A stretch of 61,008 nt of DNA from Verrucomicrobiota bacterium. Lineage in GTDB: Bacteria; Verrucomicrobiota; Verrucomicrobiia; Chthoniobacterales; Chthoniobacteraceae. The notes under the pieces are model-generated. The model saw only the letters and a list, made by a program, of their open reading frames with translations, was not told the DNA's origin and made no database searches. The position numbers and the translations under genes are program-made. The DNA is taken from contig QQND01000007.1 of assembly GCA_003402745.1 (NCBI GenBank), forward strand, positions 1-61,008, read 5' to 3'. This document shows, one piece after another, positions 35,042 through 53,469 of this stretch (its first letter is position 1; each line of letters begins with the position of its first letter).

Positions 35042-36640
35042 ATGACACCGCAGTCCTCAGCCTGGGATGTTGTCATCATCGGCGCTGCCATCTCCGGAGC
35101 CTCAACAGCGTGTCTGCTCCTCAGGCGCCATCCTGGGCTTCGGATCCTGATTATTGAAAAGAACTCGGCCTTCAAGCGACGTGTGGGCGAGTCCACCGTG
35201 GAGGTGAGTGCGCATTTTCTAGGCCGGGTGTTGGGTCTCACAGGGCATCTTCTTGAAAAACACCTGGTCAAACAGGGGCTGCGTTTCTGGTTTAAAAACG
35301 CCCAAACCACGGCCCTGGATGAATGCAGCGAAATCGGCCCTGGTTACAACGTCCGCTTTCCCGGGTACCAAGTGGACCGTTCCGTCTTGGACGAGGAAGT
35401 CCTTGCTCGCGCCGTCGCAGCGGGAGCTGTCTTGCGGCGGCCGCTGCAAGTGCGTTCAGTGGAACTGGTCGAGGGCGGTTTGCAACGCGTGGAATGGTCG
35501 GATGAAGACGGGGGCACCGGCACCGAAACCGCCCGCTGGCTGGTGGACGCCTCGGGGGTGGCCGCCGTTCTGGCTCGGAAACACCAGTGGCTTTCCTCCA
35601 ATACGGAACACCCCATCGCCGCCGTCTGGAGTCGGTGGAGCGGCGTCAAAAACTGGGACTCTCTCGAGCTGGCCGACAAGTTTCCAGCCTGGTCGAAACG
35701 CACCAAAGCGGTCCGATTTACCGCCACTAATCACCTGGTAGGCCGGGGCTGGTGGGCTTGGTTCATTCCGCTCAAAGGGGGTGATGTGAGCATCGGGGTG
35801 GTCTTCGACCAGCGTCTCGTGGAATTGCCCTCGGGCGAGCGACTGGGGGAGCGCCTTAAAGCCATGTTGTTCGAACACCCCGCTGCCAGGGAACTTCTGG
35901 AACAGGCCGTCTGGCACCCGGGCGACGTCCACTTCCGGCGTAATCTCGCCTACCGTTCAAGCACCCATGCGGGCGATGGCTTTGTTCTGGTGGGCGACGC
36001 CGCCGGTTTCATCGATCCATTTTATTCCCCGGGCCTGGACTGGATCAGCTACACCTCCAGCGCAGCCGCTGCCCTCGTGGACGACTGCCTTAAACAAACT
36101 GCAGGACCGGAGCGCATCGCCAAACACAACCAGCTTTTCACCACAAGCTACGACCGCTGGTTCCGCGCCATCTACAAGGACAAATACTTTTACATGGGCG
36201 ATTACGAACTCATGAGTTTGGCGTTCCGGCTCGACCTGGGGCTGTACTACATGGGAGTCGTTTCCCAGCCCTTCAAACACGGGGCGGTTGCCCTGGAGAC
36301 GCCCTCCTTCGCAGGACCCGGTACCTTCCTGCCCGCGCAAATCATCGCCTTTTACAACCGCCGCCTAGCAGCCATCGCACAAGACCGCTGGCAACGGGGC
36401 GTGTGGGGCCGCCACAATGCGGGCCGCCTCTTCAGTTTCCGCAGTTATGAACTGAACGCCATGCTCGGACTTCGAGTGCTCCTCGCCTTCGGCGCCTACC
36501 TCTGGTTAGAGCTGCGCGAGGGCTGGCGGACCTGGGCTAAGGCCCCCTCTCTCGTCGACGAACAGCCAATCCACCCCAGCCGCCACACCCGGCCCGTCCT
36601 GCCAGCTTTTCATTCCACCCCCCTCCCCTCCGAAAGCTGA
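35042..36640 (+). CDS. Flavin-dependent halogenase-like FAD oxidoreductase
   Basis: 532 residues. The FAD-binding Rossmann loop reads VVIIGAAISGAS near the N-terminus, followed by RRVGESTVEVS, the GEST segment shared by tryptophan-type halogenases. The halogenase hallmark WxWxIP is present as WAWFIP (residues 238-243). The second FAD motif is GDAAGFIDPFYSPG. Members of this family chlorinate or brominate aromatic rings or carrier-bound substrates with reduced flavin supplied by a separate reductase. It is the first gene of the plus-strand pigment-type cluster, and halogenases occur in xanthomonadin and flexirubin clusters. A plain oxygenase cannot be excluded without checking the catalytic lysine. 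Confidence 0.8.
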   Translation: MTPQSSAWDVVIIGAAISGASTACLLLRRHPGLRILIIEKNSAFKRRVGESTVEVSAHFLGRVLGLTGHLLEKHLVKQGLRFWFKNAQTTALDECSEIGPGYNVRFPGYQVDRSVLDEEVLARAVAAGAVLRRPLQVRSVELVEGGLQRVEWSDEDGGTGTETARWLVDASGVAAVLARKHQWLSSNTEHPIAAVWSRWSGVKNWDSLELADKFPAWSKRTKAVRFTATNHLVGRGWWAWFIPLKGGDVSIGVVFDQRLVELPSGERLGERLKAMLFEHPAARELLEQAVWHPGDVHFRRNLAYRSSTHAGDGFVLVGDAAGFIDPFYSPGLDWISYTSSAAAALVDDCLKQTAGPERIAKHNQLFTTSYDRWFRAIYKDKYFYMGDYELMSLAFRLDLGLYYMGVVSQPFKHGAVALETPSFAGPGTFLPAQIIAFYNRRLAAIAQDRWQRGVWGRHNAGRLFSFRSYELNAMLGLRVLLAFGAYLWLELREGWRTWAKAPSLVDEQPIHPSRHTRPVLPAFHSTPLPSES

Positions 36641-36679
36641 CCCTGTACTCCTTCAGGTTCGCTCCCAAAATTTCACCCC

Positions 36680-37204
36680 ATGTCTGACACACCCCACGAT
36701 CCCTCCCCGGAACCCGCACCTGCGGCATCGCCGACCCCGGAAACGGTCACTGCGCCCGTCTTCGCTCCCACCGGGCTCCCGCCCAAACCGGCCAGCCCGC
36801 CTCCAAGCAACCCGCTCGCAAAGTTTCCTTCCGCCGTGCGGGCCGCCCAAGCGCATTTTCTGGCCACCGGAGATGTCAACTCCCTGGACTCCGTCGTCCT
36901 AGCTGTTGTCCTCGATCATCAGCCCAGCGTCGCCAGAAAACCCGAGGCCGAACCGCCCGCAGATTCTGCGCGGCTCATCGAAGATCTTGGCTTCGACTCA
37001 CTCGCACTCGCAGAAATCGTTTTTTTCCTCGAAGATCTTTATAAACTGACGATTACAAACGAAGAGCTCAAAAACGTGACCACCATGGGCGAGATCCGTG
37101 CTTTCGTGAGAGCCAAGGTCGCCGAAGCCGCGCAGCCTCCAACGGCCCCTGCTTCCCCAACGGCTCCTGAATCCCCCAAGGTGGGCGACACCACCTCCGC
37201 CTAA
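36680..37204 (+). CDS. Acyl carrier protein with a proline-rich N-terminal extension
   Basis: 174 residues. The C-terminal ~110 residues form an acyl carrier protein: helix I around SVVLAVVLDHQ, the phosphopantetheine serine in GFDSLALAE (S107), helix II, and helix III/IV from EELKNVTTMGEIRAFVRAKV. The first ~60 residues are very rich in proline, alanine and serine and look disordered, and a shorter Pro/Ala tail follows the domain. Normal type II ACPs are about 80 residues. It is 39 bases after the halogenase gene and 11 before a ketosynthase gene, so it probably serves one or both. Confidence 0.85.
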   Translation: MSDTPHDPSPEPAPAASPTPETVTAPVFAPTGLPPKPASPPPSNPLAKFPSAVRAAQAHFLATGDVNSLDSVVLAVVLDHQPSVARKPEAEPPADSARLIEDLGFDSLALAEIVFFLEDLYKLTITNEELKNVTTMGEIRAFVRAKVAEAAQPPTAPASPTAPESPKVGDTTSA

Positions 37205-37215: not shown

Positions 37216-38496
37216 GTGTCACGCGAAGTTCTCATCACAGGCATCGGTTTCATTACCTGCATCGGCTCCAACGCCCCCAGTGTCGCCCGCAGCCTGCAAG
37301 ATGGCACCCACGGCTTGGTGCCTTGGGATTTTTGCGGCAATCCCATCGTCCCCGTCAAGGTGGCCGCTCCGGTGCCCGGCTTTACCGTCGATTCCCCCAG
37401 TTGGCGGGACTGGACCTGGCCTACAGAGTACGACATTCCCCGAGAAACCCTGCGAGGGCTCGCCCCCCATGGAGTTTACGCTTATTGCGCCATGGAACAG
37501 GCCCTCGCCGACGCCGGTCTGGCCAGATCCGAGCTTACTGATGGGGGCACGGGGCTATTTTGCGCCTCTGCAGGCTCGGCTTTTATCCTCCACCACAATC
37601 TCTCTCAGGCGCATGCCTGCCGCTTTGAGCGAGGCAACCCCATGGGGATCGTGTCCTCCATAGCCGGCACTCTCAACTTCAACTTGGCGGCACACTATGG
37701 AATCACGGGGGCGGTGACAGGATTTGTTTCCGCGTGCGCCTCCTCAAGCCATGCCCTGGGCTATGCAACCGATGAGATCCGGTTAGGGCGGCAGGAGCGG
37801 ATGCTCGTGGTGGGAGCCGAAGAACTCAACGCCGACACCATTCTTCCTTTCGCCCCGATGCGGGCACTTTCCGCCAGTACCGACCCGGCAACAGCCTCTC
37901 GGCCTTTTGACGTGAACCGGGACGGTTTTGTCGGGACAGGGGGCTCTGTGGTCCTCGTGCTCGAGGAAGGTTCGGTGGCGCGACGCCGCAAAGCGCGCCC
38001 TTACGCGGAAATCCTGGGCTGGGGCCAAGCCTCGGACGGCCACAGCGTGGCCACCTCGCACCCCGACGGCGCAGGCCTGCATGCTGCCATTCTCCGTGCT
38101 CTTCGCGACGCCAATCTCGAGCCGGAACAAATCGATTACATCAATGCTCACGCAACCTCCACACCGATCGGAGACCGAGCGGAAGCACTGGCCTTAAAAG
38201 CCGCCTTCACCTCAGTGGGTGCGTTTCCTTTGGTGAGCTCTACCAAGGGCCTCACAGGCCACGGACTTTCCATGGCGGGCGCCATGGAGCTTGGGTTCTG
38301 CGCCCTCGCTCTGCGCGACGGCTTCATTCCCGGCAACCCGCACTTGCGCGTACCCGACCCCGTGTGCGAGGGCTTAAATTTGCCCCAGGCCAGCCTCCGT
38401 ACAAAAGCGACCCACGTGCTGAACAACAGCAGCGGCTTCGGAGGAAGTAACGTCTGCCACGTCCTGCGGCGCATGCCTGAATCTCCCGCTTCCTAA
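37216..38496 (+). CDS. FabF-type ketosynthase
   Basis: 426 residues, starting at a GTG 11 bases after the ACP gene. It has the full decarboxylative condensation triad: cysteine in SACASSSHA (near 174), histidines in NAHATST (~311) and TGHGLSMAG (~348), plus the GTGGS and NSSGFGGSN segments. It extends carrier-bound acyl chains by two carbons using malonyl-ACP. In aryl polyene pathways such enzymes work with a partner protein lacking full activity. The nearest downstream gene on this strand is the PlsC-PAP2 fusion after 172 bases. Confidence 0.92.
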   Translation: MSREVLITGIGFITCIGSNAPSVARSLQDGTHGLVPWDFCGNPIVPVKVAAPVPGFTVDSPSWRDWTWPTEYDIPRETLRGLAPHGVYAYCAMEQALADAGLARSELTDGGTGLFCASAGSAFILHHNLSQAHACRFERGNPMGIVSSIAGTLNFNLAAHYGITGAVTGFVSACASSSHALGYATDEIRLGRQERMLVVGAEELNADTILPFAPMRALSASTDPATASRPFDVNRDGFVGTGGSVVLVLEEGSVARRRKARPYAEILGWGQASDGHSVATSHPDGAGLHAAILRALRDANLEPEQIDYINAHATSTPIGDRAEALALKAAFTSVGAFPLVSSTKGLTGHGLSMAGAMELGFCALALRDGFIPGNPHLRVPDPVCEGLNLPQASLRTKATHVLNNSSGFGGSNVCHVLRRMPESPAS

Positions 38497-38527: not shown

Positions 38528-38668
38528 AGGGTCGTATTCGCCTCGGGCGCTCATGTCTTCCTCTCCTACAAAACTGTTTCAACCCCGTACGGGCCCCTGC
38601 CGTCCTTGGCGCAACCCCGACAGTTCCCAAAGGGAAGACAACTCTATTTCAAGAAGGGGAACCGGCTC

Positions 38669-40096
38669 ATGATGCGGGCGAGTTGGCTGCGGTTTGCGTA
38701 CTATTTTTCCTGGCTCCTCTTTGGCTTGGGGGGGCTGGCGATCAACCTTGCCTACGCCCCTTTACTGCTGATTGGAAACCGCGGAAAAATGGGCCGCCAC
38801 GCCCGCAGGGGGATGCGTTGGATGCTTGATTTGTGGCTGCGCTGGATGGGGTTTTCAGGAATTGTGCGAGTCACTTGGAAGGGCTTCGAGGGTCCCCTTC
38901 CGGGCGGGGTTCTCTACGTCGCCAACCACCCCACCCTCGTTGACGCCCCCTTCCTCCTCGCCCGCCTTCCAGATGCAGTCTGCATCTTAAAACCCTCCTT
39001 GATGCGCAATCCACTCATCGGCCCGGCGGTGCATCTCTGCGGCTACGTGTCCGGCGACAAGGGCGTCGACCTGATCCGCGACGCCGCCCACCGTGTGAGC
39101 GAAGGCCAGTCCCTGCTGATTTTCCCGGAAGGCACGCGCACCCTCTCCGATGGAGCGCTCCATCCCCTTCGGCCGGGTTTCGCACTCATCGCGCAGCTTG
39201 CCAAAGCCCCGGTAAGGATCATCCGCGTGCGCTCAAGCCCGCACATGGCGCGCAAGGACTGGCCGTGGTGGCAACTGCCGCCGGTGCCCGGCTGGTTTGA
39301 ATTCACGCTGGAGGAATTGATCCCCGCAGACCGCCTCGGGCCGCCCGCCGCCCTCACCCAGCAGGTGGGCGCTTGGCTGAGCGTACCGCCCGCCGCCCAT
39401 TTTCTCCCGCCACCCCCGCCACCGCTTTACCCTCTCCTTGCCGCGCGTTTGCGCACCTTTTGGCTGGCGAAGCCTCTCGGTATGACAGCCGGCATGAGTG
39501 CCTTTTTCCTCGTCTACTTCGCCATTCTAAAACACCCCCAGTTCCCCGTCTTCACCATGCCTCTGACGGCCCCGGACCACTGGGTTCCTTTTCAACCTGG
39601 AGCGCTCTTACTCTACGTTTCCCTCTGGCTTTACGTGCCCCTGCTTCCTGCTCTTTTAGACAAACCACGGGACCTCCTGCGCTACGCTCTGGCTGCGTTC
39701 ACCATGGCCGTCTTTGGCCTGTGCTGCTTTCTTGTGTGGCCCACCGCGACTCCCACCCCCGCCCTTGACTGGGCCCAATACCCCTCGATGGCTTTCCTGA
39801 AATCCCTAGACGCCGCCGGGAACGCCTGCCCCTCCTTGCACGTGGCCTTTGCCGTGTTCACCGCGGCCGGTTTCCAGCGGCTCCTCCGGGAAATCCAGGC
39901 GGGAAGCCTGCTCCTCCTCGTAAACCTGTTCTGGAGCTTTGGGATAGCATACTCCACCATGGCGACCCGGCAACACGTGGCACTCGACGTTCTAGCAGGA
40001 ACGCTTCTCGGACTTTTATTTGCGGCTTTTACCTTCAAAAAGACACCCCCAGCCCCTACCACTCCTCCAGAGCCCCAGCCCCTGTCACCGCTCTGA
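38669..40096 (+). CDS. PlsC acyltransferase fused to a PAP2-type membrane domain
   Basis: 475 residues starting at the ATG at 38669, which follows AGAAGGGG at good spacing; the open frame extends upstream only with a TTG start. The N-terminal half is a PlsC-like acyltransferase with NHPTLVD (H87, D92) and FPEGTR (152-157). After a proline-rich stretch, the C-terminal half has about five membrane segments and the PAP2/inositolphosphotransferase signature: CPSLHVA (387-393) and the RQHVALD segment (H436, D440). The two activities, acylation and phosphate or headgroup handling of a membrane lipid, suggest attachment of the product to a lipid. It overlaps the convergent FAD gene by 41 bases. Confidence 0.8.
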   Translation: MMRASWLRFAYYFSWLLFGLGGLAINLAYAPLLLIGNRGKMGRHARRGMRWMLDLWLRWMGFSGIVRVTWKGFEGPLPGGVLYVANHPTLVDAPFLLARLPDAVCILKPSLMRNPLIGPAVHLCGYVSGDKGVDLIRDAAHRVSEGQSLLIFPEGTRTLSDGALHPLRPGFALIAQLAKAPVRIIRVRSSPHMARKDWPWWQLPPVPGWFEFTLEELIPADRLGPPAALTQQVGAWLSVPPAAHFLPPPPPPLYPLLAARLRTFWLAKPLGMTAGMSAFFLVYFAILKHPQFPVFTMPLTAPDHWVPFQPGALLLYVSLWLYVPLLPALLDKPRDLLRYALAAFTMAVFGLCCFLVWPTATPTPALDWAQYPSMAFLKSLDAAGNACPSLHVAFAVFTAAGFQRLLREIQAGSLLLLVNLFWSFGIAYSTMATRQHVALDVLAGTLLGLLFAAFTFKKTPPAPTTPPEPQPLSPL

Positions 40097-41342
40097 TCCG
40101 CGCGGCAAGTGCGTCCCTCTCCCCAGTCGCCACCAGCGGCCCCGACACCATCGCAGCTGCCGCCCTCCCCGCCGCCTCCCCCGTGGCCAGCGCCGTTCCA
40201 ATCACCCGAATCGCCGCGTGGGCTTCGTGGGTGCAGGAAAGGCAACGCCCGGCCGCCCACAAGTTCGAAACCTCCCTGGACAACAACGCCCGCAGCGGCA
40301 CCTGCACACTTTTACCCCTCTCCGGATACCGCAACCGGGGACCGGTGGCCGTCTCCCGCATTTCAATAGGCCAGGCGGACACACACACTGCATCGGAAAA
40401 AGTGGCCCCTTCCAGCACATCCTCGGCGCTCAGAACGTACTCCCCCACCAGCCTCGCGCCCTCCCGGATCCCCAGCCGGGCGGGCCATTCCCAGATTTCC
40501 GCCCCCTCGAATCCACGGATCTCCCGCCTCAAAAAGCCCGTGAATTCCTCCGCCAGTGCGCAGGCTTCCCGGTGGACCCCGGCCAGCAAAAATTCGTTCA
40601 ACGGATCGTATTCTCCCCCCCGGGCGTCCAAGTCCAAAGTCACCCGAACCTGGTCCCCCTCACACGTAGGACGCACCGCGGCACCCGCAAGCGCCGGACT
40701 CAAGGCTCCCTCCCGGATGGCGCTTCGAAGGGCCCCCACCAGCCGCAACCTCCGTTCTTCCTCCATCACGTCCGGCGCAACTTGTGCGAGCCCGAAAATA
40801 AAGGCCGGCCTCTGCATTTGAGCACCAGGGACCTGCTCCGTTGCAGCGCCGGCGGCTCTGGCAAGTGCCGCATCCCCTGAGGCGTCCACAAACACCCGGC
40901 CCTCCACGGACTCCTCCGAGCCGCAAAGCGTGACCCGCTCCAGAATACCGTCCCGCACAAAAGCCGACTCCACCCGCGCCTCCCTCCACACCGTCAAACG
41001 CGGCTCGCAAGCAGTGAGCTGTAGGCAGGTTCGAGCGAACGCCGCCGGTTCCTGCAAGAGGACATCCAGGCGCCCCATGCGCAACGGGCCCCGGGCTCCA
41101 CCGGCTGCAACCAATTGGCGGGCAAACTCCAAAGCAAAGCCTCCGTTGGCAAGTCGCGGCCTGCCCCCCTCGGAAATCTCAAAAAGTCCACAGATGCTGT
41201 GCACAAGAGCCTGCGCCACGTTGCCTCCGAGCCTGGAGGCCCGCTCCAAAAGCAGCGTGCTGCAGCCGGCTCTCGCCGCCCCAAGCGCTGCGGCTACTCC
41301 CGCAGAGCCGCCTCCGACAACCACGACATCAAACTTTTTCAT
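40056..41342 (-). CDS. FAD-dependent oxidoreductase
   Basis: 428 residues with an N-terminal FAD motif VVVVGGGSAGVAAALGAARAG and a C-terminal NLWAAGRCLSCTHEAHAAIRVIGTALATGEAAG, as in the FAD-dependent oxidoreductases of the PF12831 type. Substrate unknown. It is the only gene in this stretch on the minus strand; its 3' end overlaps the PlsC-PAP2 gene and its 5' end faces the glycosyltransferase gene across 245 bases. It could act on the polyene or be an unrelated insertion. Confidence 0.8.
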   Translation of the reverse strand: MKKFDVVVVGGGSAGVAAALGAARAGCSTLLLERASRLGGNVAQALVHSICGLFEISEGGRPRLANGGFALEFARQLVAAGGARGPLRMGRLDVLLQEPAAFARTCLQLTACEPRLTVWREARVESAFVRDGILERVTLCGSEESVEGRVFVDASGDAALARAAGAATEQVPGAQMQRPAFIFGLAQVAPDVMEEERRLRLVGALRSAIREGALSPALAGAAVRPTCEGDQVRVTLDLDARGGEYDPLNEFLLAGVHREACALAEEFTGFLRREIRGFEGAEIWEWPARLGIREGARLVGEYVLSAEDVLEGATFSDAVCVSAWPIEMRETATGPRLRYPERGKSVQVPLRALLSREVSNLWAAGRCLSCTHEAHAAIRVIGTALATGEAAGRAAAAMVSGPLVATGERDALAARIRAVTGAGALEEW

Positions 41343-41587: not shown

Positions 41588-42370
41588 ATGGAACAGCCGC
41601 CCACGCCTTGCGCCTCCCACTGCGTCATCATTCCCAGTTACAATTCGGGAGCGCTGCTCGCCCCGACCCTACACGCGACCCTGGCCCAATGGGCTCCCAT
41701 CTTTCTGGTAGTGGACGGCTCCACCGACGCCAGTGACCGCTGCGCAGCCGCTTTGATTGAGTCGGGAGCGCCCTTAGAAGTACTGCGTCTGGAGAAAAAC
41801 CAGGGCAAGGGCGGCGCCGTACTCGAGGCCCTCAAACTCGCCAGCTCCAGGGGCCTTACCCACGCGGTAATCTTTGACTCCGACGGCCAGCACGAAGCTG
41901 CGGACATCCCGCGGATGATCGCCCTCTCCAAAAAACATCCCGAAGCCATGATCTTGGGCGTGCCCATCTTCTCTGCGGATGCCCCCGCCCTGAGGGTCAA
42001 GGGCCGTTGCTTTGGCAATTGGTGGACCAACTTCGAAACCCTCTGGGGAGGCATTGAAGACTCCCTCTTCGGCTTCCGCCTCTATCCCGTCGCCGAATCC
42101 ATCGCCGTCCTCTCCGCAATCAAAGGCGGGCGCCGCTTTGATTTCGAAACCCAGCTCGCCGTGCGTTTGTACTGGAGGGGCGTCCCCACCCTCAGTTTCC
42201 CTTCCAAGGTGACCTATCCGGAGAAAACCAGCGGCGGGGTCTCCCACTTCAAATACGTGAGGGACAACGTCCTTTTATTTTGGACACACTTCAAACTCAG
42301 CCTCTTCGCCGTTTGTATCCTTCCACGCCTCTTTAGGCTGCGACTCAAAAACCGGGCCTACCGCGCATGA
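41588..42370 (+). CDS. Family 2 glycosyltransferase
   Basis: 260 residues of GT-A fold: VIIPSYNSGALL, the nucleotide-sugar region VVDGSTDAS, and IFDSDGQHEAADIPRM with the DxD-type metal motif. A hydrophobic C-terminus (LSLFAVCILPRLF) suggests peripheral membrane association. GT2 enzymes of this size are constant members of aryl polyene and flexirubin clusters, where they are thought to link the polyene to a sugar or lipid. It overlaps the deacetylase gene by ATGA. Confidence 0.88.
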   Translation: MEQPPTPCASHCVIIPSYNSGALLAPTLHATLAQWAPIFLVVDGSTDASDRCAAALIESGAPLEVLRLEKNQGKGGAVLEALKLASSRGLTHAVIFDSDGQHEAADIPRMIALSKKHPEAMILGVPIFSADAPALRVKGRCFGNWWTNFETLWGGIEDSLFGFRLYPVAESIAVLSAIKGGRRFDFETQLAVRLYWRGVPTLSFPSKVTYPEKTSGGVSHFKYVRDNVLLFWTHFKLSLFAVCILPRLFRLRLKNRAYRA

Positions 42371-43272: not shown

Positions 43273-43554
43273 ATGGATTCCACAAAAGAAGTTTCGATTG
43301 ACCTGCTCAAAGGACTGCTCGTTGAAAACACGATGATCAAAGTTGATCCTGAAACGATCAATGAAGAGACCATTTTGTTTGGTGAAGAAGGCATCGGCCT
43401 GGATTCCCTCGACGCTCTCCAAATGATTGTCGCCGTTGAAAAACGCTACGGCATTGAGATCAAAGATCCGACGATGGCCAGAGATGCACTCCAAAGCTTG
43501 GGCGTGCTCCGCGACTGGATCCAAACTCGATTGACCTCGACCTCCGTTTCCTAG
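43273..43554 (+). CDS. Acyl carrier protein
   Basis: 93 residues, standard type II ACP size. The phosphopantetheine serine lies in GLDSLDALQMI (S45), and the acidic helix II follows. Helix III is around KDPTMARDALQSL. It stands between the deacetylase and LpxL-like genes. The cluster encodes two further carrier proteins, so each may serve a different partner (starter loading, elongation, or terminal transfer). Confidence 0.92.
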   Translation: MDSTKEVSIDLLKGLLVENTMIKVDPETINEETILFGEEGIGLDSLDALQMIVAVEKRYGIEIKDPTMARDALQSLGVLRDWIQTRLTSTSVS

Positions 43555-46244: not shown

Positions 46245-47284
46245 GCCAAGACCTTTCCATCCTCTCCTGGGGGGTCGTCTCGCCAGGAGGAACAGGCGTT
46301 GCTTCCCTCTCCAATCCGGCAGCCTGGCCCAAAACTCTCGTCCCCGAAAACGCCCACCCAGGCCGGGAGCATCCCGTGGCCTACGTCGCCCCAGAAACCC
46401 TGCCGGACCGGTGGCGCTTGCGCCCCAGATTCCGCCGGGCCAGCCCCCTCTCGCATTTCATGGTGGAGGCCGCAGCCCAAGCCTTGGAGGCACAACCAGG
46501 AATCGACCGCTCCCGCTTGGGGATGATCTGCGCCACAAGCGTCGGCTGCTCCCTCTACTCTGTGCGTTTCTACCGCCAGTTTCAAAAGGAAGGACGCCGC
46601 TTTGCCAGTCCCCTTCTTTTTCCGGAAACGGTCACCAACAGCCCTCTCAGCCACCTCGCCTCCGAATTAAATACAGGCGGCCCCGTTTACTCCCAAATCG
46701 GCGACAAATCCTGCTGGAGCAACGCCCTGCGCACCGCCGCTTGCTGGCTCAAAAACGGAGATGCCGACTCCGTTCTCGTCCTCGGCGCCGAAGAGTTCGA
46801 ACCCCACGAACTGGACGCCTTCCGCGCCATGCGCTGGCTCGACAGACCCTACACCCGCCCCTTCGCGGAAGGCGCGGGCGCCGTCTTGCTCGCCAGTGGG
46901 TCCCATCCGAACGCACCAAAACTTACCCAAATCGCAGACGGCTTTTGTTTCCACTCCCTCAGCGCAGGCGTGCAGACCGCCCAAAAATGCCTCGGTAAGT
47001 TCCCCCCGGAAATTCCAGTGTGCGACTCCGCCACCGGCTGGATAGAGACCGTGGCCCAAAAGACCCACGCGACCCGCCCCGGCTTCGGCCCCCTCCCAAA
47101 CCTGGCGCACGAAGCCTACTGCGCTTCCTGCTCCTGGGACACCATCCGCGCCGCAGCATACCTGAGCACCCATCCCTCCGAGGCCCTCGTCGTTCCCTAC
47201 TGGGGACTCGCCCTCCAAGTCGGAGCCGCTCTTCTTTCCGGCTCACAATTCTGCCCCCCCCCGGGAGGATCACAGCCGCTCTAA
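46241..47284 (+). CDS. Degenerate ketosynthase / chain-length-factor-like protein
   Basis: 347 residues, shorter than a full ketosynthase. A ketosynthase-like core is seen (SPLSHFMVEAAAQALEAQ, GAEEFEPHELDAF), with a cysteine in GDKSCWSNA (C158) at the usual nucleophile position. Neither active-site histidine motif (NAHGTGT, GHxxGAAG) is present; DSATGWIETV and CSWDTIRAAAYL stand in their places. Such incomplete partners set chain length or form heterodimers with KS-alpha. Its ATGA overlap with the second ketosynthase supports that. The 3' end overlaps the convergent ligase gene by 4 bases. Confidence 0.8.
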   Translation: MSQDLSILSWGVVSPGGTGVASLSNPAAWPKTLVPENAHPGREHPVAYVAPETLPDRWRLRPRFRRASPLSHFMVEAAAQALEAQPGIDRSRLGMICATSVGCSLYSVRFYRQFQKEGRRFASPLLFPETVTNSPLSHLASELNTGGPVYSQIGDKSCWSNALRTAACWLKNGDADSVLVLGAEEFEPHELDAFRAMRWLDRPYTRPFAEGAGAVLLASGSHPNAPKLTQIADGFCFHSLSAGVQTAQKCLGKFPPEIPVCDSATGWIETVAQKTHATRPGFGPLPNLAHEAYCASCSWDTIRAAAYLSTHPSEALVVPYWGLALQVGAALLSGSQFCPPPGGSQPL

Positions 47285-48747
47285 CGGCGCACCTTGCCAC
47301 TCGCCGTTTTTTCCAACCGCTCCACAACCACAAAGCGCACCGGAACCTTGTATTGCGCCAGCGATTTCCGGCAGTGCTGGGCCAGTTCCGCCGGACGCAC
47401 TTCTTCAACCCCAAACCCCTCTTCAAGAACGATATCAGCCACCACAAAGGTTCCCCAGCGCTCGTTCTCCTCCCCCCGCACACGCGCCTCGGCGACCCCG
47501 GGATGCCGCAACAGAACCTCCTCGATTTCTTCCGGAAAACATTTCATCCCGCCGATGTTCAAAACAGATTTCAAGCGGCCCAACAGTTCGATGCTTCCAA
47601 AGGCGTCGCGCCGCGCAATGTCGCCGGTGTGAAACCAGCCTTCGCGCAATACACAAGCCCTCGGCTGCCAAGGAGTCAGGTACGCGTCAAACATCCCGGG
47701 GCCGCGCAGGCACAACTCCCCCTCGTTGGCGGCAGCTCCGTTTTTATCAAGCAGCACCAGCTCGAAATCGTCAGGCCGTCCCAAGGCGGTCGGAGCCTCC
47801 AGGGCCCCCTCCAGGTTGAGCAGGGGCAGCCCAGCCTCAATGATTCCAAATCCCTGGGTCAGCGGGATTCCGAACCGCTCATAAAACCGCCTCGCGATTT
47901 CACCAGTGAGAGCGGCCGCCGTGGACACGGCAAGCCTGAGCGTGTCCCAACAACGCGCTGAGGACTCACTAGCCAGCAGCCGGAAATGATAGGGCGCACC
48001 ATACATCACCGTCGCCCCCCAGCGTTTTGCACTGCCCAAAAGCGCCTCAGCAAGATGCGAATCCTCCAAAATCACACCGGCGCCCGCATTCAGATACAAT
48101 AGAATGGACACCGCAAAGTGATGCGCCATCGGCAGCGTCCAAAGCACCCGGTCCGCGGCGCTCACCCCCAGACGGCGGTTGGCCGATTGGATCCGCTCCA
48201 GCAAAGACGCGTGCGACAACACCACGCCCTTACTCGCGCCCGTTGTCCCCGAGGAAAACCGAATCAACGCCGGGGCAAGCGCCGCAAAATCCGCCTCCGA
48301 AAAACCAGGGTCCGTGGCGGGCTCCAAAAGGCATAGGCTGCAGGATTCTTCACCCTGAAACCGCATCCGCAACTCGCGCGCGCCGCCCGCGGGGGACCAG
48401 GAAAGGCCTCCTGCGCCCACCACGGCGTGCAGCGCGGTGCGCCTCACGAGGCTCTCTCGCTCACACTCTGCAAGCTCCTGTGGCACGGGAACAAGACAGC
48501 CACCTCCCAGAAGAATACCAAGCGCCCAAACCACGTGTGCAACGCCGTTGGGGCAGTACAAACCGATCCTCGCCACCGGTTGCGCTCCGCAATCAAATGC
48601 ACCCGCGCTTCGCAGTTGCTCGCAGGCCTCCCGCGCGCTCGAGGCCAGCCAGGCGTAGGACCAGCACTCCTCCCCCAAGAAAAGGGCCGGCGCCTCGGGG
48701 CGGGCCGCCGCCTGAGCCAAGAACCCGGCCAGTATGTTTCCCGTCAT
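47281..48747 (-). CDS. AMP-forming acyl-/amino acid ligase
   Basis: 488 residues from the start at 48747, coupled to the upstream gene by ATGA. The adenylation motif FSSGTTGASKGV (165-175) and the terminal lysine loop EKTASGKVRR (K485) are intact. This superfamily activates a carboxylic acid as an acyl-AMP and loads it on CoA or a carrier protein. The presence of a carrier-protein gene in the same operon suggests direct loading. In aryl polyene systems a ligase of this kind activates 4-hydroxybenzoate or a cinnamate; here its operon-mate condensation protein raises other options, such as an amino or short fatty acid. Confidence 0.88.
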   Translation of the reverse strand: MTGNILAGFLAQAAARPEAPALFLGEECWSYAWLASSAREACEQLRSAGAFDCGAQPVARIGLYCPNGVAHVVWALGILLGGGCLVPVPQELAECERESLVRRTALHAVVGAGGLSWSPAGGARELRMRFQGEESCSLCLLEPATDPGFSEADFAALAPALIRFSSGTTGASKGVVLSHASLLERIQSANRRLGVSAADRVLWTLPMAHHFAVSILLYLNAGAGVILEDSHLAEALLGSAKRWGATVMYGAPYHFRLLASESSARCWDTLRLAVSTAAALTGEIARRFYERFGIPLTQGFGIIEAGLPLLNLEGALEAPTALGRPDDFELVLLDKNGAAANEGELCLRGPGMFDAYLTPWQPRACVLREGWFHTGDIARRDAFGSIELLGRLKSVLNIGGMKCFPEEIEEVLLRHPGVAEARVRGEENERWGTFVVADIVLEEGFGVEEVRPAELAQHCRKSLAQYKVPVRFVVVERLEKTASGKVRR

Positions 48748-50060
48748 TCGCAACCTCCCAGCAGATCCTCCCGCAACCGGGCGCACATCAGCTCCACTTC
48801 ACTCTCCGACAATACCCCGTCCCGCCAAGAAAGCGTGGCGGTCAGGCAACGGTTGCGTTCACTGAAAAAAATCCCCGACCCGGGCGGCTGCGAAACCGTG
48901 GGGATATGCCAGCCATCGCTGATTTGCGCCCCGCAAAACATCTGAGTTTCAGGCATGAATTGGCCCGTGTGGGAGTGGAAAAAAGAGGTGATGGACCCCT
49001 TGGTTTGCCGCCTCAAAAGATGGATATAAAATCTGCTCGGGAACCTCAAAAACCAATGAAGCATGATCAAAAAAGCTGATTCCACCTTGTGCCTGGCCAT
49101 CAACCCGAACTGCGAGTGGATCGACTTTGCAGCAGTTTCCAGATTCCCAACCTCCTCATGCGTGAGCGCAAAATAAAACTGGGACATCTGATTCTGAAAA
49201 ATCGGGTGCTTCGCGCCCCGCCGCCGCCCCTGCACGGGAGCCGCGGCGTGGTAGTTCATCCCAGACTCACCCCGCCCAGCAAAAACCGCCGCATGCGCCC
49301 GGGCGACGACTGCAAAAAAATAGGGAAGTTGAAAAATCCCGCCCGTGAGGTGGTCGGCCCGGGCCCGGATTTTTTCACTCTGGAACTCGTCAAAATGAAG
49401 CGTCTTAAACCGGGCCTCTCCGGCTTCCGCCGCAACGCGCCCAAGTGACTTGAATGCGAGCAACTTGAGGACATTGTAGCGCTCCACAAAAGGCCGCACT
49501 TTTTGCCTGCGCTCCTCCATCGTCTTGGGAAGCTCAAAGGCCGCCCCCCAAGATTCCTGTACGCAGGGCGCCTCCAGCGGGTGCTCGGCAAGTCGCGCAA
49601 TTTCATACAGCGCCAGCTCAATCCCCCTCCCGTCCAAAAGCAGATGAAGCCATTTAACAACCACAAAAACCCCGCCAGGTCTTGGGATAACTTCAAACCG
49701 CAGGGCCTCCGAAGAAACCGTGCACAGCAACTCCCGGCAAATAGCCTCCACCGAGCCCCCCTCGGGACGCTCGTACACCCCCACCGCTTCCCCCGAAAAT
49801 GGCCCCGTGGCACGCCATTCAGGAATGCCAAACCAATGTCGGCGCCGCACCCGCGCATGCAGCAAGGGATGCGACTGCGAAAACCGGGTGGCTGCCGAGC
49901 GCAGCGCCTCCACAGAAAAAGCTCCTGTGAGTTTGAGCACGCTCAGCCCCACATGCCGCCCCTGGCCGGCACGGCCCATCATCCCCTCCAGCCCGAGGAG
50001 AAAACCATCGCACCCCACCAAGGGCACGCTGAAACACCGCGTTTCCCGCTCCGAAGTCAT
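48744..50060 (-). CDS. Condensation-domain-like acyltransferase
   Basis: 438 residues. The acyltransferase motif HHxxxDG is present as LHLLLDG (H139, D143, G144), in which the second, catalytic histidine is kept and the first is leucine. The N-terminal FSQSHPLLHARV region and the C-terminal RNRCLTATLSWRDGVLSESEVE segment are typical of the condensation/WES/PapA superfamily. It is stand-alone, not part of a multidomain NRPS. Such proteins form amide or ester bonds between a carrier-bound acyl group and an amine or alcohol. It lies between a carrier-protein gene and a ligase gene in one operon, all coupled by 4-base overlaps. Confidence 0.78.
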   Translation of the reverse strand: MTSERETRCFSVPLVGCDGFLLGLEGMMGRAGQGRHVGLSVLKLTGAFSVEALRSAATRFSQSHPLLHARVRRRHWFGIPEWRATGPFSGEAVGVYERPEGGSVEAICRELLCTVSSEALRFEVIPRPGGVFVVVKWLHLLLDGRGIELALYEIARLAEHPLEAPCVQESWGAAFELPKTMEERRQKVRPFVERYNVLKLLAFKSLGRVAAEAGEARFKTLHFDEFQSEKIRARADHLTGGIFQLPYFFAVVARAHAAVFAGRGESGMNYHAAAPVQGRRRGAKHPIFQNQMSQFYFALTHEEVGNLETAAKSIHSQFGLMARHKVESAFLIMLHWFLRFPSRFYIHLLRRQTKGSITSFFHSHTGQFMPETQMFCGAQISDGWHIPTVSQPPGSGIFFSERNRCLTATLSWRDGVLSESEVELMCARLREDLLGGCE

Positions 50061-50323
50061 TCGCAGGAATATCCCAACCGCACCACCAACGCGGCGAGCG
50101 CAGTGACGGAAGCAAAGTTGTCGCGCGTCACATCGGCATCTCCAATGACAACCCCCAGCCGCTCCTCGATTTGAATGATGAGCTGCATAATCCCCATCGA
50201 CTCCAGCCCCGCATTAAAGAGATCCTCTTCCGCACTCAAATTGCGCCCAAAATCTACAAGATGCCCCTCCACCAAACCCATGAGTTCAGTCTTTAACTTC
50301 TGATTAGCTATCGGGGGCACCAT
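50057..50323 (-). CDS. Acyl/peptidyl carrier protein
   Basis: 88 residues. The phosphopantetheine serine is in AGLESMGIMQLI (S42), preceded by AEEDLFNAG and followed by the acidic IQIEERLGVVI helix. The GLESM spelling rather than GxDSL occurs in many ligase-coupled carriers. It is the first gene of the minus-strand trio and overlaps the condensation-like gene by 4 bases. It is divergent from lolA across about 100 bases. Confidence 0.88.
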   Translation of the reverse strand: MVPPIANQKLKTELMGLVEGHLVDFGRNLSAEEDLFNAGLESMGIMQLIIQIEERLGVVIGDADVTRDNFASVTALAALVVRLGYSCE

Positions 50324-50426: not shown

Positions 50427-51086
50427 ATGCGCCGCGCCGCCCTTCTCCTGTCGCCCCTGCTTGCGGTCTCCGCCCTCGCACAGGATCCGGTGGACCTGGC
50501 CCCCTTGAAAAACTGGCTCTCCCTCCAAAAAGGCCTCCGCAGCGTGGAGGCCGACTTCGTCCAATCCCGTTCTCTGCGCACCCTGCGAAAACCGATCACC
50601 GCTCCGGGAAAACTCTGGTTCACCTCCAACGGGGATCTTCACTGGGAATTAGGGGCACCGCCCAAGACGGTTTTCCTCAGAAACAGGGAGGGCTCCTTTT
50701 TGATACAACCTGTTAAAAAACGATTTCAAACGCTCAACGTCGGCCCGGATGCGCCTGCCGGAGCGCAGGGATTTCAAATGCCGGAGTTTCCACTGGCCGC
50801 CGACCTGGGGGAATTCACCAAACGCTTCGAGGTCCTCAAAGTCGAGCCACAGCCTGCGCACTGCGACGCGGAAGTGCTTCCACGCGATGTGCAGGCAAGA
50901 AAATACGTGCAGGTCCTGCGCCTTCGTTTTGATCCCAAAAATGGCCAACTGCACTTCTTTGAAGTGGTGGGCAAGGATGGCTCCAGCCTGAAGACCGAGT
51001 TCTCCAACGTCCGAACCAACCAAAAAATCGACCCCTCCGTATTCACCTTTGATCTGAATGGATATCGCTCCGACTCCGAAAAATAG
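50427..51086 (+). CDS. LolA-like periplasmic lipid carrier
   Basis: 219 residues with a signal peptide (MRRAALLLSPLLAVSALAQ). The mature protein reads as an outer-membrane lipoprotein carrier: ADFVQSRSLRTLRKPITAPGKLWF at the start of the half-barrel, and FDPKNGQLHFFEVVGKDGS towards the end. In aryl polyene and flexirubin clusters a LolA-like protein is thought to carry the lipid-linked product across the periplasm. It overlaps the exporter gene by 29 bases. Confidence 0.85.
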   Translation: MRRAALLLSPLLAVSALAQDPVDLAPLKNWLSLQKGLRSVEADFVQSRSLRTLRKPITAPGKLWFTSNGDLHWELGAPPKTVFLRNREGSFLIQPVKKRFQTLNVGPDAPAGAQGFQMPEFPLAADLGEFTKRFEVLKVEPQPAHCDAEVLPRDVQARKYVQVLRLRFDPKNGQLHFFEVVGKDGSSLKTEFSNVRTNQKIDPSVFTFDLNGYRSDSEK

Positions 51087-53469
51087 TAGCCGCCGCACCC
51101 TGCAAGCCTGCGTGGCAGCCGCCTGCCTCGTACTCACGCTTCTGGGCCTTTCACGGATATCCTTCGACGTCGATATCCTCAAAATGCTCCCCCAAGACCT
51201 GCCCCAGGTGCGCGGGTTGGGGCTTTTTCTCAAAAATTTCTCACAGTCCGACCAACTCATCCTCACCGTAGAGACCGAATCCCCGGAAGCCGCCGACCAA
51301 ATCACCGACGCCATCGCCCAGCGCCTCCAGTCGCGGCCCGAACTCACACGCCTCGTCGTCTCCTCTTCTCCCTGGGAATCCAGCCCAGCCGATCTAGGCG
51401 AGCTCGCCGCCTACCTCTCCTTCAACAGTTCCAAGGAAACCTTCGCCGCCCTTCACGCGCGCCTCGCCCCCGCTCAACGCGCCACAACCCTCGCCGCCAC
51501 CCTCGAACGCATCGGGGACTCCATCTCCCCACAGGAAGTCACCCTCGCCAGCTACGACCCCTTCGGCCTCGTCCCCTCCCTGTCCGAGAGCGGCCTTTTA
51601 TCCCGCTCCCAATCCTCTGAATTTAGCTCCGCAGACGGCACTTTCCGCGTGCTTTACGTCTACGCCCCGCACCCCCTCAAAAACTATAAGGCAGCCATCG
51701 CCTGGATCACCGCCATCAAGCAGGCCGTTCAGGAATGGCGCTGCCTGCCCGGCGTCACTCTAGGATTCACCGGTGAACCCTCCTTTGTGGCGGATATTTC
51801 AGGCGCCATGGAGTGGGACATGTCCAGCTCCTCGTTTGTCACGCTCGTGCTCATTGCCCTCGTGTTTCTCGCCTGTTACCGCCGCGCCACGCCTCTGTTC
51901 GGACTCCAATTGATGCTGGCCCTCATTTTTGTGCTCACCCTCGGGGCCGCCGGCCTTTTCCTCAAACAACTCACCGTCATCGGCGTCGGCTGCGCTGCCA
52001 TCATGATCGGCCTGAGCGTGGATTACGGGTACTTCATCTTCCAACGCTCCCTCCAACATTCCGGCACCGTTTCGGAACTTCGTGCCCAATGCTGGCAGTA
52101 CATTGCCTGGACCGCGGGAACGACAGCTGCCGCGTTTTTCTCCCTCAATCTCAGCAGCCTTCCTGGCCTCTCGCAGCTTGGCAATTTGGTAGGCTTCGGC
52201 GTGGTCATCGGCGCGGCTGTCATGCTGACACTGTTTGCCCCTCTGGCTCTAGCCTACCGGCGCAAAACCACTCTGCAAAAAACATCCGGCATCGAACGGC
52301 TCCTGTGTTCTCCCTCTTTTGCAAAGTCGGGGTTCGCCCTGACTCTGGCCCTCACAACCTTCCTTTTGGGAGCGCTTTGCACCAAGGGATTTCCCAAAAT
52401 GGAGTTCTCTCCGGGCTACCTGCGTCCGCGCCACAGTGATGCCTACACCGCTCTTGAAAGGCTTTCCGCCAAACTCATGGACACCGGCGACCTCCTTCAT
52501 TTGATCGTGGAAGGCAACTCCGAACGCGAAGTCTGGGAACGCCTCCAAAAAGTAGACCGCTTCCTCTCCAACGCCAAGACCCAGGGCCAGGTGGCTTCCT
52601 TCCTGACGCCGTTGCTTTTTTGGCCCAACCCCGACGCCCAAGAAGCGAACCTCGCCATCGCCGGCGAGCTGGCCCGCGAAAAGGAGCACCTGCGCGAGGC
52701 AGTTCTTGATGCCGGCTTTACCGAGCAAGCCTTCGGTCTCACAGAGCAGGTCCTGGCCCAATGGCAAAAATGGGCCCTCCGCCCCGATCCCTCCCTTTCC
52801 CTGTGGCCGGAGAGTCCAAGCAGCCAGTGGATTCTTGGCAAAATCAGCAGCCGCTCCCCGGGCCGTTTTTTGGCAGCCGGCGCCATCACGCCCACCCCCG
52901 GCATGGAGGACGCATTGATCGAATCTCTAAAACTGCCCGGCACTTTCATCGTGGGCTGGCCTCAACTGGGGAAAGCGCTGCAAAAAGTCGTTCCTAGGGA
53001 AATTGTTGCCATCATCTGCACCTTGAGCGTTCTCGTCCTCCTGCTCCTCGCCTTCGCCCTGCGCAGCACCCGCGCGCTCCTCTGCTTCGTACTCACCACC
53101 GCCCTAGTCTTCACCTGCCTGGCGGGCGTGATGTCCCTCCTGGGAATGACTTGGAACATTTTCAATCTCGCCGCCCTGCTCCTCCTCCTCGGCACCGGGA
53201 CGGACTACAGCATCCTCATCCTTCTTTCCCTCAGACGTAATGGCGGCGACCTTCCCGCGACTCAGAAGGAGCTTTTCCTGGTGATCGGCCTGTGTGCTTC
53301 CTCCGCGGCCGCGGGCTTCGGAACCATTGGCTGGGCCAACCACCTCGGCCTTGCCGTCCTGGGACAAACCTGCGCCATCGGCTTGGGCCTGGACGCCCTC
53401 ATTTCCCTCTTCCTCCTGCCCCCCGCTTGGAAGGCCCTCCAGCGCCTTTCTCCCCCGCGACTCGGATAG
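51058..53469 (+). CDS. MMPL/RND-family exporter
   Basis: 803 residues with about 12 membrane segments in two repeats: one N-terminal helix, a large periplasmic loop (~30-250), a block of five helices (~262-400), a second loop (~440-635), and a final helical block. The RND-type segment GVGCAAIMIGLSVDYGYFIFQRS lies in the first block and LLLLGTGTDYSILILLSLRR in the second. MMPL exporters move lipid-linked products out of the inner membrane. The length and the overlap with lolA match the exporter-carrier pair seen with aryl polyenes. The gene begins inside lolA. Confidence 0.9.
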   Translation: MDIAPTPKNSSRRTLQACVAAACLVLTLLGLSRISFDVDILKMLPQDLPQVRGLGLFLKNFSQSDQLILTVETESPEAADQITDAIAQRLQSRPELTRLVVSSSPWESSPADLGELAAYLSFNSSKETFAALHARLAPAQRATTLAATLERIGDSISPQEVTLASYDPFGLVPSLSESGLLSRSQSSEFSSADGTFRVLYVYAPHPLKNYKAAIAWITAIKQAVQEWRCLPGVTLGFTGEPSFVADISGAMEWDMSSSSFVTLVLIALVFLACYRRATPLFGLQLMLALIFVLTLGAAGLFLKQLTVIGVGCAAIMIGLSVDYGYFIFQRSLQHSGTVSELRAQCWQYIAWTAGTTAAAFFSLNLSSLPGLSQLGNLVGFGVVIGAAVMLTLFAPLALAYRRKTTLQKTSGIERLLCSPSFAKSGFALTLALTTFLLGALCTKGFPKMEFSPGYLRPRHSDAYTALERLSAKLMDTGDLLHLIVEGNSEREVWERLQKVDRFLSNAKTQGQVASFLTPLLFWPNPDAQEANLAIAGELAREKEHLREAVLDAGFTEQAFGLTEQVLAQWQKWALRPDPSLSLWPESPSSQWILGKISSRSPGRFLAAGAITPTPGMEDALIESLKLPGTFIVGWPQLGKALQKVVPREIVAIICTLSVLVLLLLAFALRSTRALLCFVLTTALVFTCLAGVMSLLGMTWNIFNLAALLLLLGTGTDYSILILLSLRRNGGDLPATQKELFLVIGLCASSAAAGFGTIGWANHLGLAVLGQTCAIGLGLDALISLFLLPPAWKALQRLSPPRLG

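What the first reader, a model, noticed from the sequence alone, without database searches (positions are those of the whole stretch)
35042..53469. Unusual aryl polyene/flexirubin-like biosynthetic cluster with halogenase and lipid-export genes
Seen: two full ketosynthases, one degenerate ketosynthase, FabZ-like dehydratase, three carrier proteins, halogenase-like protein, GT2, NodB deacetylase, LpxL-like and PlsC-PAP2 acyltransferases, LolA and MMPL exporter in 18 kb. Established knowledge: this set defines aryl polyene, xanthomonadin and flexirubin clusters, whose pigments sit in the outer membrane. Inference: the product is a halogenated, sugar- or lipid-linked polyene. The mix with a deacetylase, a PAP2 fusion and a condensation-type trio is not one I can match to a described cluster.
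Basis: partly seen in the sequence, partly recalled or inferred. Interest (0 to 1): 0.85.

Follow-up and report, generated by a model that had tools for sequence, protein, structure and literature searches.

The report
Verrucomicrobial aryl-polyene-like lipid gene cluster
A Verrucomicrobiota genome carries an 18-gene cluster that most likely builds a halogenated, sugar-linked conjugated lipid for the outer membrane, using its own lineage of chain-building enzymes and an extra acyl-transfer module not seen in the textbook aryl polyene cluster.

Summary
A second MAG (L061) carries all 18 genes at 79-96% identity.

GT2, PlsC, LpxL, LolA and MMPL match the E. coli aryl polyene (APE) attachment and export proteins. 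The GT2 + PlsC + deacetylase mix occurs in APE-type clusters of Roseomonas and Azospirillum. The halogenase keeps its catalytic Lys and WxWxIP motif.

It is not a canonical APE cluster. KS2/KS3 are a separate, mainly verrucomicrobial ketosynthase/chain-length-factor lineage (KS2 clade 100/99), outside both the ApeO and the FabF groups. KS3's fold is nearest, by a small margin, the ishigamide (polyene) chain-length factor. ApeC-, ApeI/ApeP-, ApeQ- and ApeK-type proteins were not found. No ketoreductase was seen in 19 of 20 compared loci; the house FabG probably serves. The ligase belongs to an ACP / HxxxD-acyltransferase / ligase module that recurs in APE-like clusters of other classes of the phylum.

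Verdict: a new variant of a known kind. Product, halogenation and pigment are inferred, not shown.

The parts
35042..36640 (+). flavin-dependent halogenase-like protein (type 2, 532 aa), K77 and GWWAWFIP
   Evidence: PF04820 8.6e-16; 18 of the 19 PDB sequences matched at 1e-5 are named or known halogenases, the exception being 3nix; K77 aligned with the Lys of 5wgt that is catalytic (residue role recalled); Lys in 25 of 25 rows
36680..37204 (+). ACP1, carrier domain with Pro-rich N-terminal extension
   Evidence: PF00550 6.9e-05; DSL site
37216..38496 (+). KS1, full ketosynthase, groups with FabB/ApeR
38606..40096 (+). PlsC acyltransferase fused to PAP2 phosphatase; PlsC part ApeD-like
   Evidence: PF01553, PF01569; hhalign vs ApeD 99.4% (profile of 2 sequences)
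40056..41342 (-). FAD-dependent oxidoreductase
   Evidence: PF12831 1.9e-76; homologs next to ACP3 or Cond in L080, L046, L049, L164, L171
41588..42370 (+). GT2 glycosyltransferase, ApeJ N-terminal type
   Evidence: 39% to ApeJ, 5e-52; hhalign 100%
42367..43185 (+). NodB-type polysaccharide deacetylase
   Evidence: PF01522 1.3e-27
43273..43554 (+). ACP2, ApeE-like carrier protein
   Evidence: PF00550; 50% over 36 aa to ApeE, 1e-5
43568..44542 (+). LpxL/HtrB-type acyltransferase, ApeJ C-terminal type
   Evidence: PF03279 3e-19; hhalign vs ApeJ C-terminus 95.4%
44539..44973 (+). FabZ-type hot-dog dehydratase (HFPG...LLLE)
   Evidence: PF07977 1.6e-16, scanned as the longer frame from 44410; sequence
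45009..46244 (+). KS2, full ketosynthase of the mainly verrucomicrobial KS/CLF lineage
   Evidence: C-H-H; clade 100/99
46241..47284 (+). KS3, degenerate ketosynthase, read as chain-length factor
   Evidence: no catalytic Cys/His/His; model pLDDT 91, top three fold hits are 6kxd/6kxf/6kxe chain B of the ishigamide KS/CLF
47281..48786 (-). AMP-dependent ligase of the trio type
   Evidence: PF00501 2e-47; trio-type ligase clade, SH-aLRT 99
48744..50060 (-). Cond: HxxxD acyltransferase / condensation superfamily
   Evidence: H-x3-D-[GA] in 21 of 21 relatives examined; family profile hits C domains 1.1e-7 and a dimycocerosyl transferase 1.4e-7
50057..50323 (-). ACP3, carrier protein of the trio
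   Evidence: PF00550 6e-08
50427..51086 (+). LolA-like periplasmic carrier
   Evidence: PF03548 2.8e-11
51058..53469 (+). MMPL/RND-type lipid exporter, ApeM-like
   Evidence: PF03176 1.5e-20; hhalign vs ApeM 99%
53486..54079 (-). PagL-type outer-membrane protein, conserved at this place in L061
   Evidence: PF09411 3.5e-16

Best explanation
The cluster makes an outer-membrane polyene lipid by an aryl-polyene-like route with its own parts. Inferred steps: a starter acid is loaded on a carrier (ACP1 or ACP3) and may be halogenated there by the FAD halogenase. KS1 primes, and the KS2/KS3 heterodimer (ketosynthase + chain-length factor) extends the chain on ACP2 with malonyl units. The house FabG reduces, since no ketoreductase was found in the cluster, and the FabZ-type enzyme dehydrates, giving conjugated double bonds. 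The ApeJ-type GT2 and the NodB-type deacetylase supply an amino-sugar anchor, probably polyprenyl-linked. The PlsC-PAP2 and LpxL-type acyltransferases attach the acyl chains. The module of ligase, ACP3, Cond and probably the FAD oxidoreductase loads a second acid and transfers it as an ester or amide to the product. MMPL and LolA carry the lipid to the outer membrane. Shown: gene content, conservation, catalytic residues, KS3 as a KS-fold protein without the triad (by model), and relationship of the attachment/export proteins to APE proteins. Inferred: all substrates and the product.
For: APE-type attachment/export proteins by pairwise and profile comparison; GT2 hits 34 plasmid records, mostly from genera also listed for ApeO; KS2 beside KS3 (gap at most 241 bases) in 78 of 80 loci of the KS3 scan, the other two contigs beginning just before KS3; KS3 fold nearest the chain-length factor of the polyene maker ishigamide; KS2 clade 100/99 outside the FabF/FabB/ApeR/NodE group, itself 94/84; halogenase residues kept; same GT2 + PlsC + deacetylase set in Roseomonas and Azospirillum APE clusters; deacetylase, LolA and DUF2062 in an Aureispira flexirubin-like cluster; Cond and KS3 co-occur (17 of 27 Cond+ genomes have a KS3 match against 26 of 260 Cond-, own genome left out), 1.85-3.2 kb apart in 7 of the 9 genomes of other classes that have both.
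Against: No ketoreductase found in the cluster, although each conjugated bond needs one; the house FabG is assumed. No ApeC-, ApeI-, ApeP- or ApeK-type protein found. No aromatic ammonia-lyase in the genome, which is 69% complete, so an aryl starter is not shown. The ligase is not of the type found in most relatives' clusters. Co-occurrence is not corrected for kinship, and in other classes the KS3 matches are weak (best E about 1e-9 to 1e-13) and may be other ketosynthases. In the same class Cond and KS3 sit at different places of the genome. In the other-class clusters the polyene KS is of the ApeO group, not of the KS2 clade. The fold margin of the chain-length factor over FabF is small (TM to query 0.75-0.77 against 0.71-0.76 for the FabF rows in the top 30 but one). 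The amino-sugar anchor of APE lipids (galactosamine-phosphate-glycerol) is recalled, not read.
Confidence: 0.58

Rival explanations
1. Canonical halogenated aryl polyene cluster (xanthomonadin/APE), merely divergent.
For: Shared GT2, PlsC, LpxL, LolA, MMPL and ACP types; halogenated APE head groups are known from xanthomonadin (PMC8253772, passages read).
Against: PF13723, PF22818 and PF22817 are not reached by the window proteins at their cut-offs, and no ApeQ- or ApeK-type gene was found; ApeO and its kin form a group (99/95) without KS2, and a KS2+ApeO clade is weakly rejected (AU p 0.038).
Confidence: 0.17
2. A non-aryl, non-pigment outer-membrane lipid: KS2/KS3 make a special long or unsaturated acyl chain from an ordinary fatty acyl starter.
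For: No ketoreductase and no ammonia-lyase found, ligase not of the relatives' type; 38 of 80 KS3-scan loci show the KS2/KS3 pair with no other window homolog, though some of these contigs are short; LpxL/PlsC/PagL-type proteins act on lipids.
Against: Halogenases next to ACP2 or near KS2/KS3 in many relatives and a chain-length-factor fold nearest a polyene-making one fit an aromatic or polyene product better.
Confidence: 0.18
3. Flexirubin-like ester: a polyene acid esterified by Cond to a phenolic lipid.
For: An HxxxD acyltransferase with its own ACP and ligase; a polysaccharide deacetylase and a DUF2062 protein also lie in a Bacteroidota flexirubin-like cluster.
Against: No ammonia-lyase found; the ketosynthases of the cluster are all of the FabF/KS type, and no resorcinol-forming enzyme was recognised, though none was searched for by its own model.
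Confidence: 0.05

Closest known systems
E. coli CFT073 aryl polyene cluster (ApeA-R; NC_004431, L060; Ape letters assigned from memory of the published order)
   Same: KS/CLF elongation, dehydratase, ACPs, ApeJ-type GT2 and acyltransferase, PlsC-type ApeD, ligase, LolA, MMPL exporter
   Different: Window has GT2 and LpxL unfused, a different KS/CLF lineage, a FabZ-type dehydratase, and no reductase or thioesterase found; adds halogenase, deacetylase, PAP2, FAD oxidoreductase, Cond trio, PagL
Roseomonas haemaphysalidis / Azospirillum ramasamyi plasmid APE-type clusters (L177, L178)
   Same: Unfused GT2, PlsC-type acyltransferase, polysaccharide deacetylase, KS + chain-length factor, LolA, MMPL, AMP ligase, halogenase (Roseomonas) or FAD oxidoreductase (Azospirillum)
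   Different: They have FabG and SAM methyltransferases; no Cond trio or PAP2 fusion in the annotation seen, which includes hypothetical proteins
Aureispira anguillae flexirubin-like cluster (L181)
   Same: Several KSs, CLF, ACPs, polysaccharide deacetylase, LolA, DUF2062 protein
   Different: Has aromatic ammonia-lyase, FabG, thioesterase; no halogenase or Cond in the annotation seen
Ishigamide KS/CLF (PDB 6kxd)
   Same: KS3 is structurally nearest its chain B, taken as the chain-length factor because KS2 matches chain A and KS3 chain B
   Different: Actinobacterial polyene amide, no outer-membrane export set (recalled)
Dimycocerosyl transferases and NRPS condensation domains
   Same: HxxxD motif and profile similarity of Cond
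   Different: Cond is stand-alone, 18-40% identical to its relatives other than L061, and usually next to an ACP and a ligase

Membership tests
Canonical aryl polyene (APE) cluster | ApeO-type ketosynthase | tested here: not met
   ApeO, a flexirubin-like KS and APE-like KSs of other classes form a group (99/95) without KS2; KS2 is its own clade (100/99); KS2 + 3 ApeO held as one clade: AU p 0.038. Only 3 ApeO sequences were in the tree
Canonical aryl polyene (APE) cluster | ApeC-type chain-length factor (PF13723) | tested here: not met
   KS3 hits only PF00109/PF08545; 9 of 33 scanned KS3 sequences reach PF13723 at E 0.01; hhalign vs ApeC 0.3%
Canonical aryl polyene (APE) cluster | ApeI (PF22818) and ApeP (PF22817) dehydratases | tested here: not met
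   One FabZ-type enzyme; ApeI model only E 0.006, under the cut-off; no ApeP; by profile it is alike to both (93.9% and 85.1%)
Canonical aryl polyene (APE) cluster | Dedicated ketoreductase ApeQ | tested here: not met
   None of 8 PF13561 matches of the genome lies on contig C7; no ApeQ hit in window 30-60 kb; KR in 1 of 20 compared loci, L070
Canonical aryl polyene (APE) cluster | ApeJ/ApeD attachment set | tested here: met
   GT2, LpxL and PlsC match ApeJ N, ApeJ C and ApeD
Canonical aryl polyene (APE) cluster | ApeL/ApeM (LolA, MMPL) export | tested here: met
   hhalign 77.5% and 99%
Canonical aryl polyene (APE) cluster | Aryl polyene product, absorbance near 420-460 nm | not testable with these tools
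   needs expression or culture
Flexirubin cluster | Aromatic ammonia-lyase starter supply | tested here: inconclusive
   no PF00221 match in the genome, which is only 69% complete
Flexirubin cluster | Dialkylresorcinol enzymes DarA/DarB | not tested
   no DarA/DarB query was run
Xanthomonadin cluster | Chorismatase XanB2 starter supply | not tested
   no query was run; gene name recalled
Flavin-dependent halogenase | Catalytic Lys and WxWxIP motif | tested here: met
   K77 and GWWAWFIP; activity untested
KS/CLF (type II PKS) pair | Full KS next to a KS-fold partner without the triad | tested here: met

The most novel reading that the evidence does not exclude
A separate class of polyene lipids of Verrucomicrobiota: built by an independent KS/CLF lineage that relies on the house FabG, and decorated by a dedicated second acylation module (ligase, ACP3, HxxxD transferase, FAD oxidoreductase) that travels with polyene synthases across several classes of the phylum, so that the final molecule carries two different acid-derived parts on one amino-sugar anchor.
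Probability: 0.3. Interest if true: 0.62.

Novelty: new variant of a known kind. Interest (0 to 1): 0.42.

Why it matters
In one Antarctic soil data set 'arylpolyene' is the second commonest cluster call in Verrucomicrobiota (PMC8692599, passages read). None of the titles and abstract starts listed (aryl polyene with Verrucomicrobia, 21 papers) names a product from the phylum; the papers were not read for it. This work indicates that one large group of such clusters is not the proteobacterial system: its chain-building pair is a lineage of its own, its reductase was not found, and in this genome it comes with a little-studied acyl-transfer module also found in clusters of other classes. That gives a defined set of genes to test for the identity of an unknown outer-membrane lipid.

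Tried and rejected
Ordinary fatty-acid synthesis: rejected for KS2, whose clade stands apart from own and E. coli FabF; the genome also has two other KSs, one FabF-like. KS1 cannot be told from a FabB/ApeR-type enzyme.

Whether KS2 is nearer to ApeO or to FabF: not resolved. In the careful tree KS2, the ApeO group and a Streptomyces/Priestia pair meet in an open fork; in the quick tree a starred branch (96) puts KS2 with the FabF group against ApeO. An earlier wording that KS2 lies on the ApeO side was an effect of the drawn root and was dropped; the confidence of the best explanation was lowered by 0.02 for it.

A fold for Cond: the model from 3 sequences was poor (pLDDT 49.5) and was not searched; the sequence profile was used instead.

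The best PDB sequence hit of KS2 is 9s5h chain B, and KS3's profile also hits 9s5h chain C, so that entry may be a KS/CLF pair. Its organism could not be learned (one search gave nothing relevant).

Celluxanthene and other arylpolyene alkaloids (PMC12144888, outline and passages read): rejected, since they use a type I iterative PKS and KASIII-type enzymes.

The 20 compared loci are the window and 19 others.

Rows dropped: four KS fragments under 300 aa before the first tree; the careful tree used 35 of 63 rows, leaving out three long-branch rows and other rows; two ligase rows (L079, L037), short or without a hit; halogenase rows of 400 aa or less, among them L061's fragment; profiles were capped at the first 30 members per family and some were small (PlsC 2, LolA 5, MMPL 7). 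Duplicates: L075/L035 and L083/L039 are the same genomes.

Literature: all ten searches cover only open-licence papers; two searches found none. The APE lipid structure preprint is not held, and its galactosamine-phosphate-glycerol anchor is recalled.


Full report
What is there. The window is a whole contig (C7) of a 2.79 Mb MAG, 69% complete. Between secretion/pilus-type genes on the left (a secretin at 30932, T2SSE and T2SSF genes at 22-26 kb; ORFs up to 34863) and PagL, DUF2062 and Transposase_31 genes on the right, 17 genes fill 35042-53469 and the PagL gene follows. Order: halogenase, ACP1, KS1, PlsC-PAP2, FAD oxidoreductase (-), GT2, NodB-type, ACP2, LpxL-type, FabZ, KS2, KS3, ligase (-), Cond (-), ACP3 (-), LolA, MMPL, PagL (-). 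The starts of FabZ and KS2 were set at 44539 and 45009 by choice of an inner ATG. Several neighbours overlap by 4-43 bases, which fits operons.

Catalytic residues. KS1 and KS2 have C-H-H; KS3 has K, a gap and L at these columns. Across 33 aligned KS3 sequences no Cys is invariant or nearly so. The KS3 model is good (pLDDT 91); its three best PDB fold matches are chain B of the ishigamide KS/CLF (E 2e-19 to 4e-19, TM to query 0.75-0.77), with FabF (best 2e-17, 0.73) and other chain-length factors below, so the margin is small. KS2-KS3 is read as a ketosynthase/chain-length-factor pair.

Conservation. A search with KS3 found matches in 44 of 288 genomes of the phylum (own included; E <= 1e-8). 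The scan of genome contigs gave 230 relatives, of which the best 80 were kept; most record titles name Verrucomicrobiota, and the nearest are Chthoniobacteraceae and Spartobacteria MAGs. KS2 lies within 241 bases of KS3 in 78 of 80; the contigs of the other two begin 14 and 154 bases before KS3. L061 holds all 18 genes. 38 of the 80 show only the KS2/KS3 pair among window homologs, some on short contigs, so the pair also serves without this cluster, or with parts elsewhere.

Relation to aryl polyenes. Against the E. coli CFT073 cluster (Ape letters assigned from memory): GT2 matches the N-terminus of ApeJ (39%, 5e-52), PlsC matches ApeD (2.7e-22), ACP2 matches ApeE, KS1 and KS2 match ApeR and ApeO. 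By profile, LpxL matches ApeJ's C-terminus (95.4%), MMPL ApeM (99.0%), LolA ApeL (77.5%), the ligase ApeH (99.5%, expected for any such ligase), FabZ ApeI (93.9%) and ApeP (85.1%); KS3 matches ApeO (95.2%) but not ApeC (0.3%). The families PF13723, PF22818 and PF22817, present in E. coli, are not reached by the window proteins at their cut-offs. Among plasmid records GT2 hits 34, mainly Pseudoalteromonas, Caballeronia, Cupriavidus and Acinetobacter, genera also listed for ApeO. Two other carriers, Azospirillum and Roseomonas, are annotated with GT2, lysophospholipid acyltransferase, polysaccharide deacetylase, KS, chain-length factor, LolA, MMPL, AMP ligase, FabG and, in Roseomonas, tryptophan 7-halogenase. 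So the deacetylase in such a cluster is not new. A probable halogenase linked to APE ketosynthases in Acetobacteraceae has also been reported (PMC8776678, passages read).

Ketosynthase trees. In a careful tree of 35 rows the KS2 relatives form one clade (100/99). FabF, FabB, ApeR, NodE, KS1 and the two other KSs of the genome form a group (94/84). ApeO, a flexirubin-like KS and APE-like KSs of other classes form another (99/95). KS2 lies in neither; which is nearer is not resolved, and the quick tree of 63 rows joins KS2 rather with the FabF group (96). Forcing KS2 and ApeO together costs 7.7 log units (AU p 0.038), a weak rejection. KS1 falls with FabB/ApeR (94/96) on a long branch.

Missing parts. 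None of the eight PF13561 matches of the genome lies on contig C7, and neither ApeQ nor ApeK hits window 30-60 kb. In the window and 19 relatives a reductase was seen only in L070 (1 of 20; stretches of 11.7-23 kb, some cut by contig ends). More distant KS2/KS3 loci such as L084, L093, L098, L107 and L116 do have an ApeQ-like reductase. A short halogenase occurs in 12 of these 20 loci, but not in the window or L061, which have a second, longer type; in the loci read gene by gene it stands next to ACP2. All 25 halogenase rows keep the Lys (two pairs of rows are the same genomes); in the longer type the window, L098 and L110 keep WxWxIP, while L063, L065, L067 and L069 have lost the Pro.

The extra module. 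ACP3, Cond and the ligase overlap in one minus-strand run. The window ligase groups with ligases found next to Cond elsewhere, and with that of L080, which stands with ACP3 and the FAD oxidoreductase but no Cond (99, 10 rows); ten ligases of relatives' clusters form another group (93). Trios stand apart from KS2/KS3 in L165 and L166; inside APE-like clusters of other classes are the full trio (L161, L162, L168), Cond with ligase (L169), and Cond with ACP3 (L163, L164, L171). The FAD oxidoreductase family sits beside ACP3 in L080, L046 and L049 and beside Cond in L164 and L171; in the window it lies 9 kb from ACP3. Cond was found in 28 of 288 genomes (own included; E <= 1e-5). Leaving out the window's genome, 17 of 27 Cond+ genomes have a KS3 match against 26 of 260 without Cond (Fisher 1.3e-9, not corrected for kinship); in 7 of 9 other-class genomes with both, the two are 1.85-3.2 kb apart. 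There the KS3 match is weak, and the neighbouring KSs that were placed in the tree are of the ApeO group, so the link is with polyene-type synthases rather than with the KS2 lineage alone. In the window's class all 8 Cond+ relatives are KS3+, but at different places. Cond carries H-x3-D-[GA] in 21 of 21 relatives examined and in the window, and its profile finds NRPS condensation domains (1.1e-7) and a dimycocerosyl transferase (1.4e-7); Pfam finds nothing in the window protein and only weak hits in a few of 20 members. The likely job is transfer of an ACP3-bound acid to a hydroxyl or amino group.

Mechanism and limits. The model in Best explanation follows the APE route in PMC8253772 (passages) and PMC8776678 (passages): ApeH loads 4-hydroxybenzoate, ApeR starts, ApeO/ApeC extend, ApeQ and ApeI/ApeP reduce and dehydrate, ApeD/ApeJ attach, ApeM/ApeL/ApeN export. 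The block halogenase-ACP1-KS1 could be a starter module, since KS1 is ApeR/FabB-like; this is inference. Nothing here shows an aryl starter, a pigment or a halogen in the product.

Judgement. What stands out is not the deacetylase but the separate KS/CLF lineage, the unfound reductase and the linked acyl-transfer module. I file it as APE-like in working, not as a member of the canonical APE family.

Noticed in passing
L085, L086, L088, L101 and others: 38 of 80 KS3-scan loci show the KS2/KS3 pair with no other window homolog within the fetched stretch; in L085 its neighbours include an Nramp and an aminotransferase gene. What the lone pair makes is unknown.
   Followed up: partly
L165 and L166: ACP3-Cond-ligase trios away from KS2/KS3, next to a patatin gene in L165 and near a tryptophan-halogenase-family gene in L166, with KS3 elsewhere in the same genomes.
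   Followed up: partly
L070: A contig filed as Betaproteobacteria carries a KS2/KS3 cluster inside the verrucomicrobial clade: transfer or misbinning.
   Followed up: no
window 54961-56058: Transposase_31 (YhgA-like) gene with a run of SQGL repeats near its C-terminus, beside the cluster's right edge.
   Followed up: no
window 53486-54079; L061, L093, L110, L116, L126: PagL-type proteins recur near KS2/KS3 loci (5 of 80 loci).
   Followed up: partly
L063, L065, L067, L069: Four type-2 halogenases have lost the Pro of WxWxIP; two of these loci also hold the core halogenase, the other two contigs end too early to tell.
   Followed up: partly
window 45009-46244: Many plasmid matches of KS2 are rhizobial ketosynthases (37-38%); the one fetched lies in a stretch with a NodA-family gene, but the tree puts it in the FabF group.
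   Followed up: yes
window 17317-19497: PlsC-AMP ligase fusion (Aas-like), outside the cluster.
   Followed up: no
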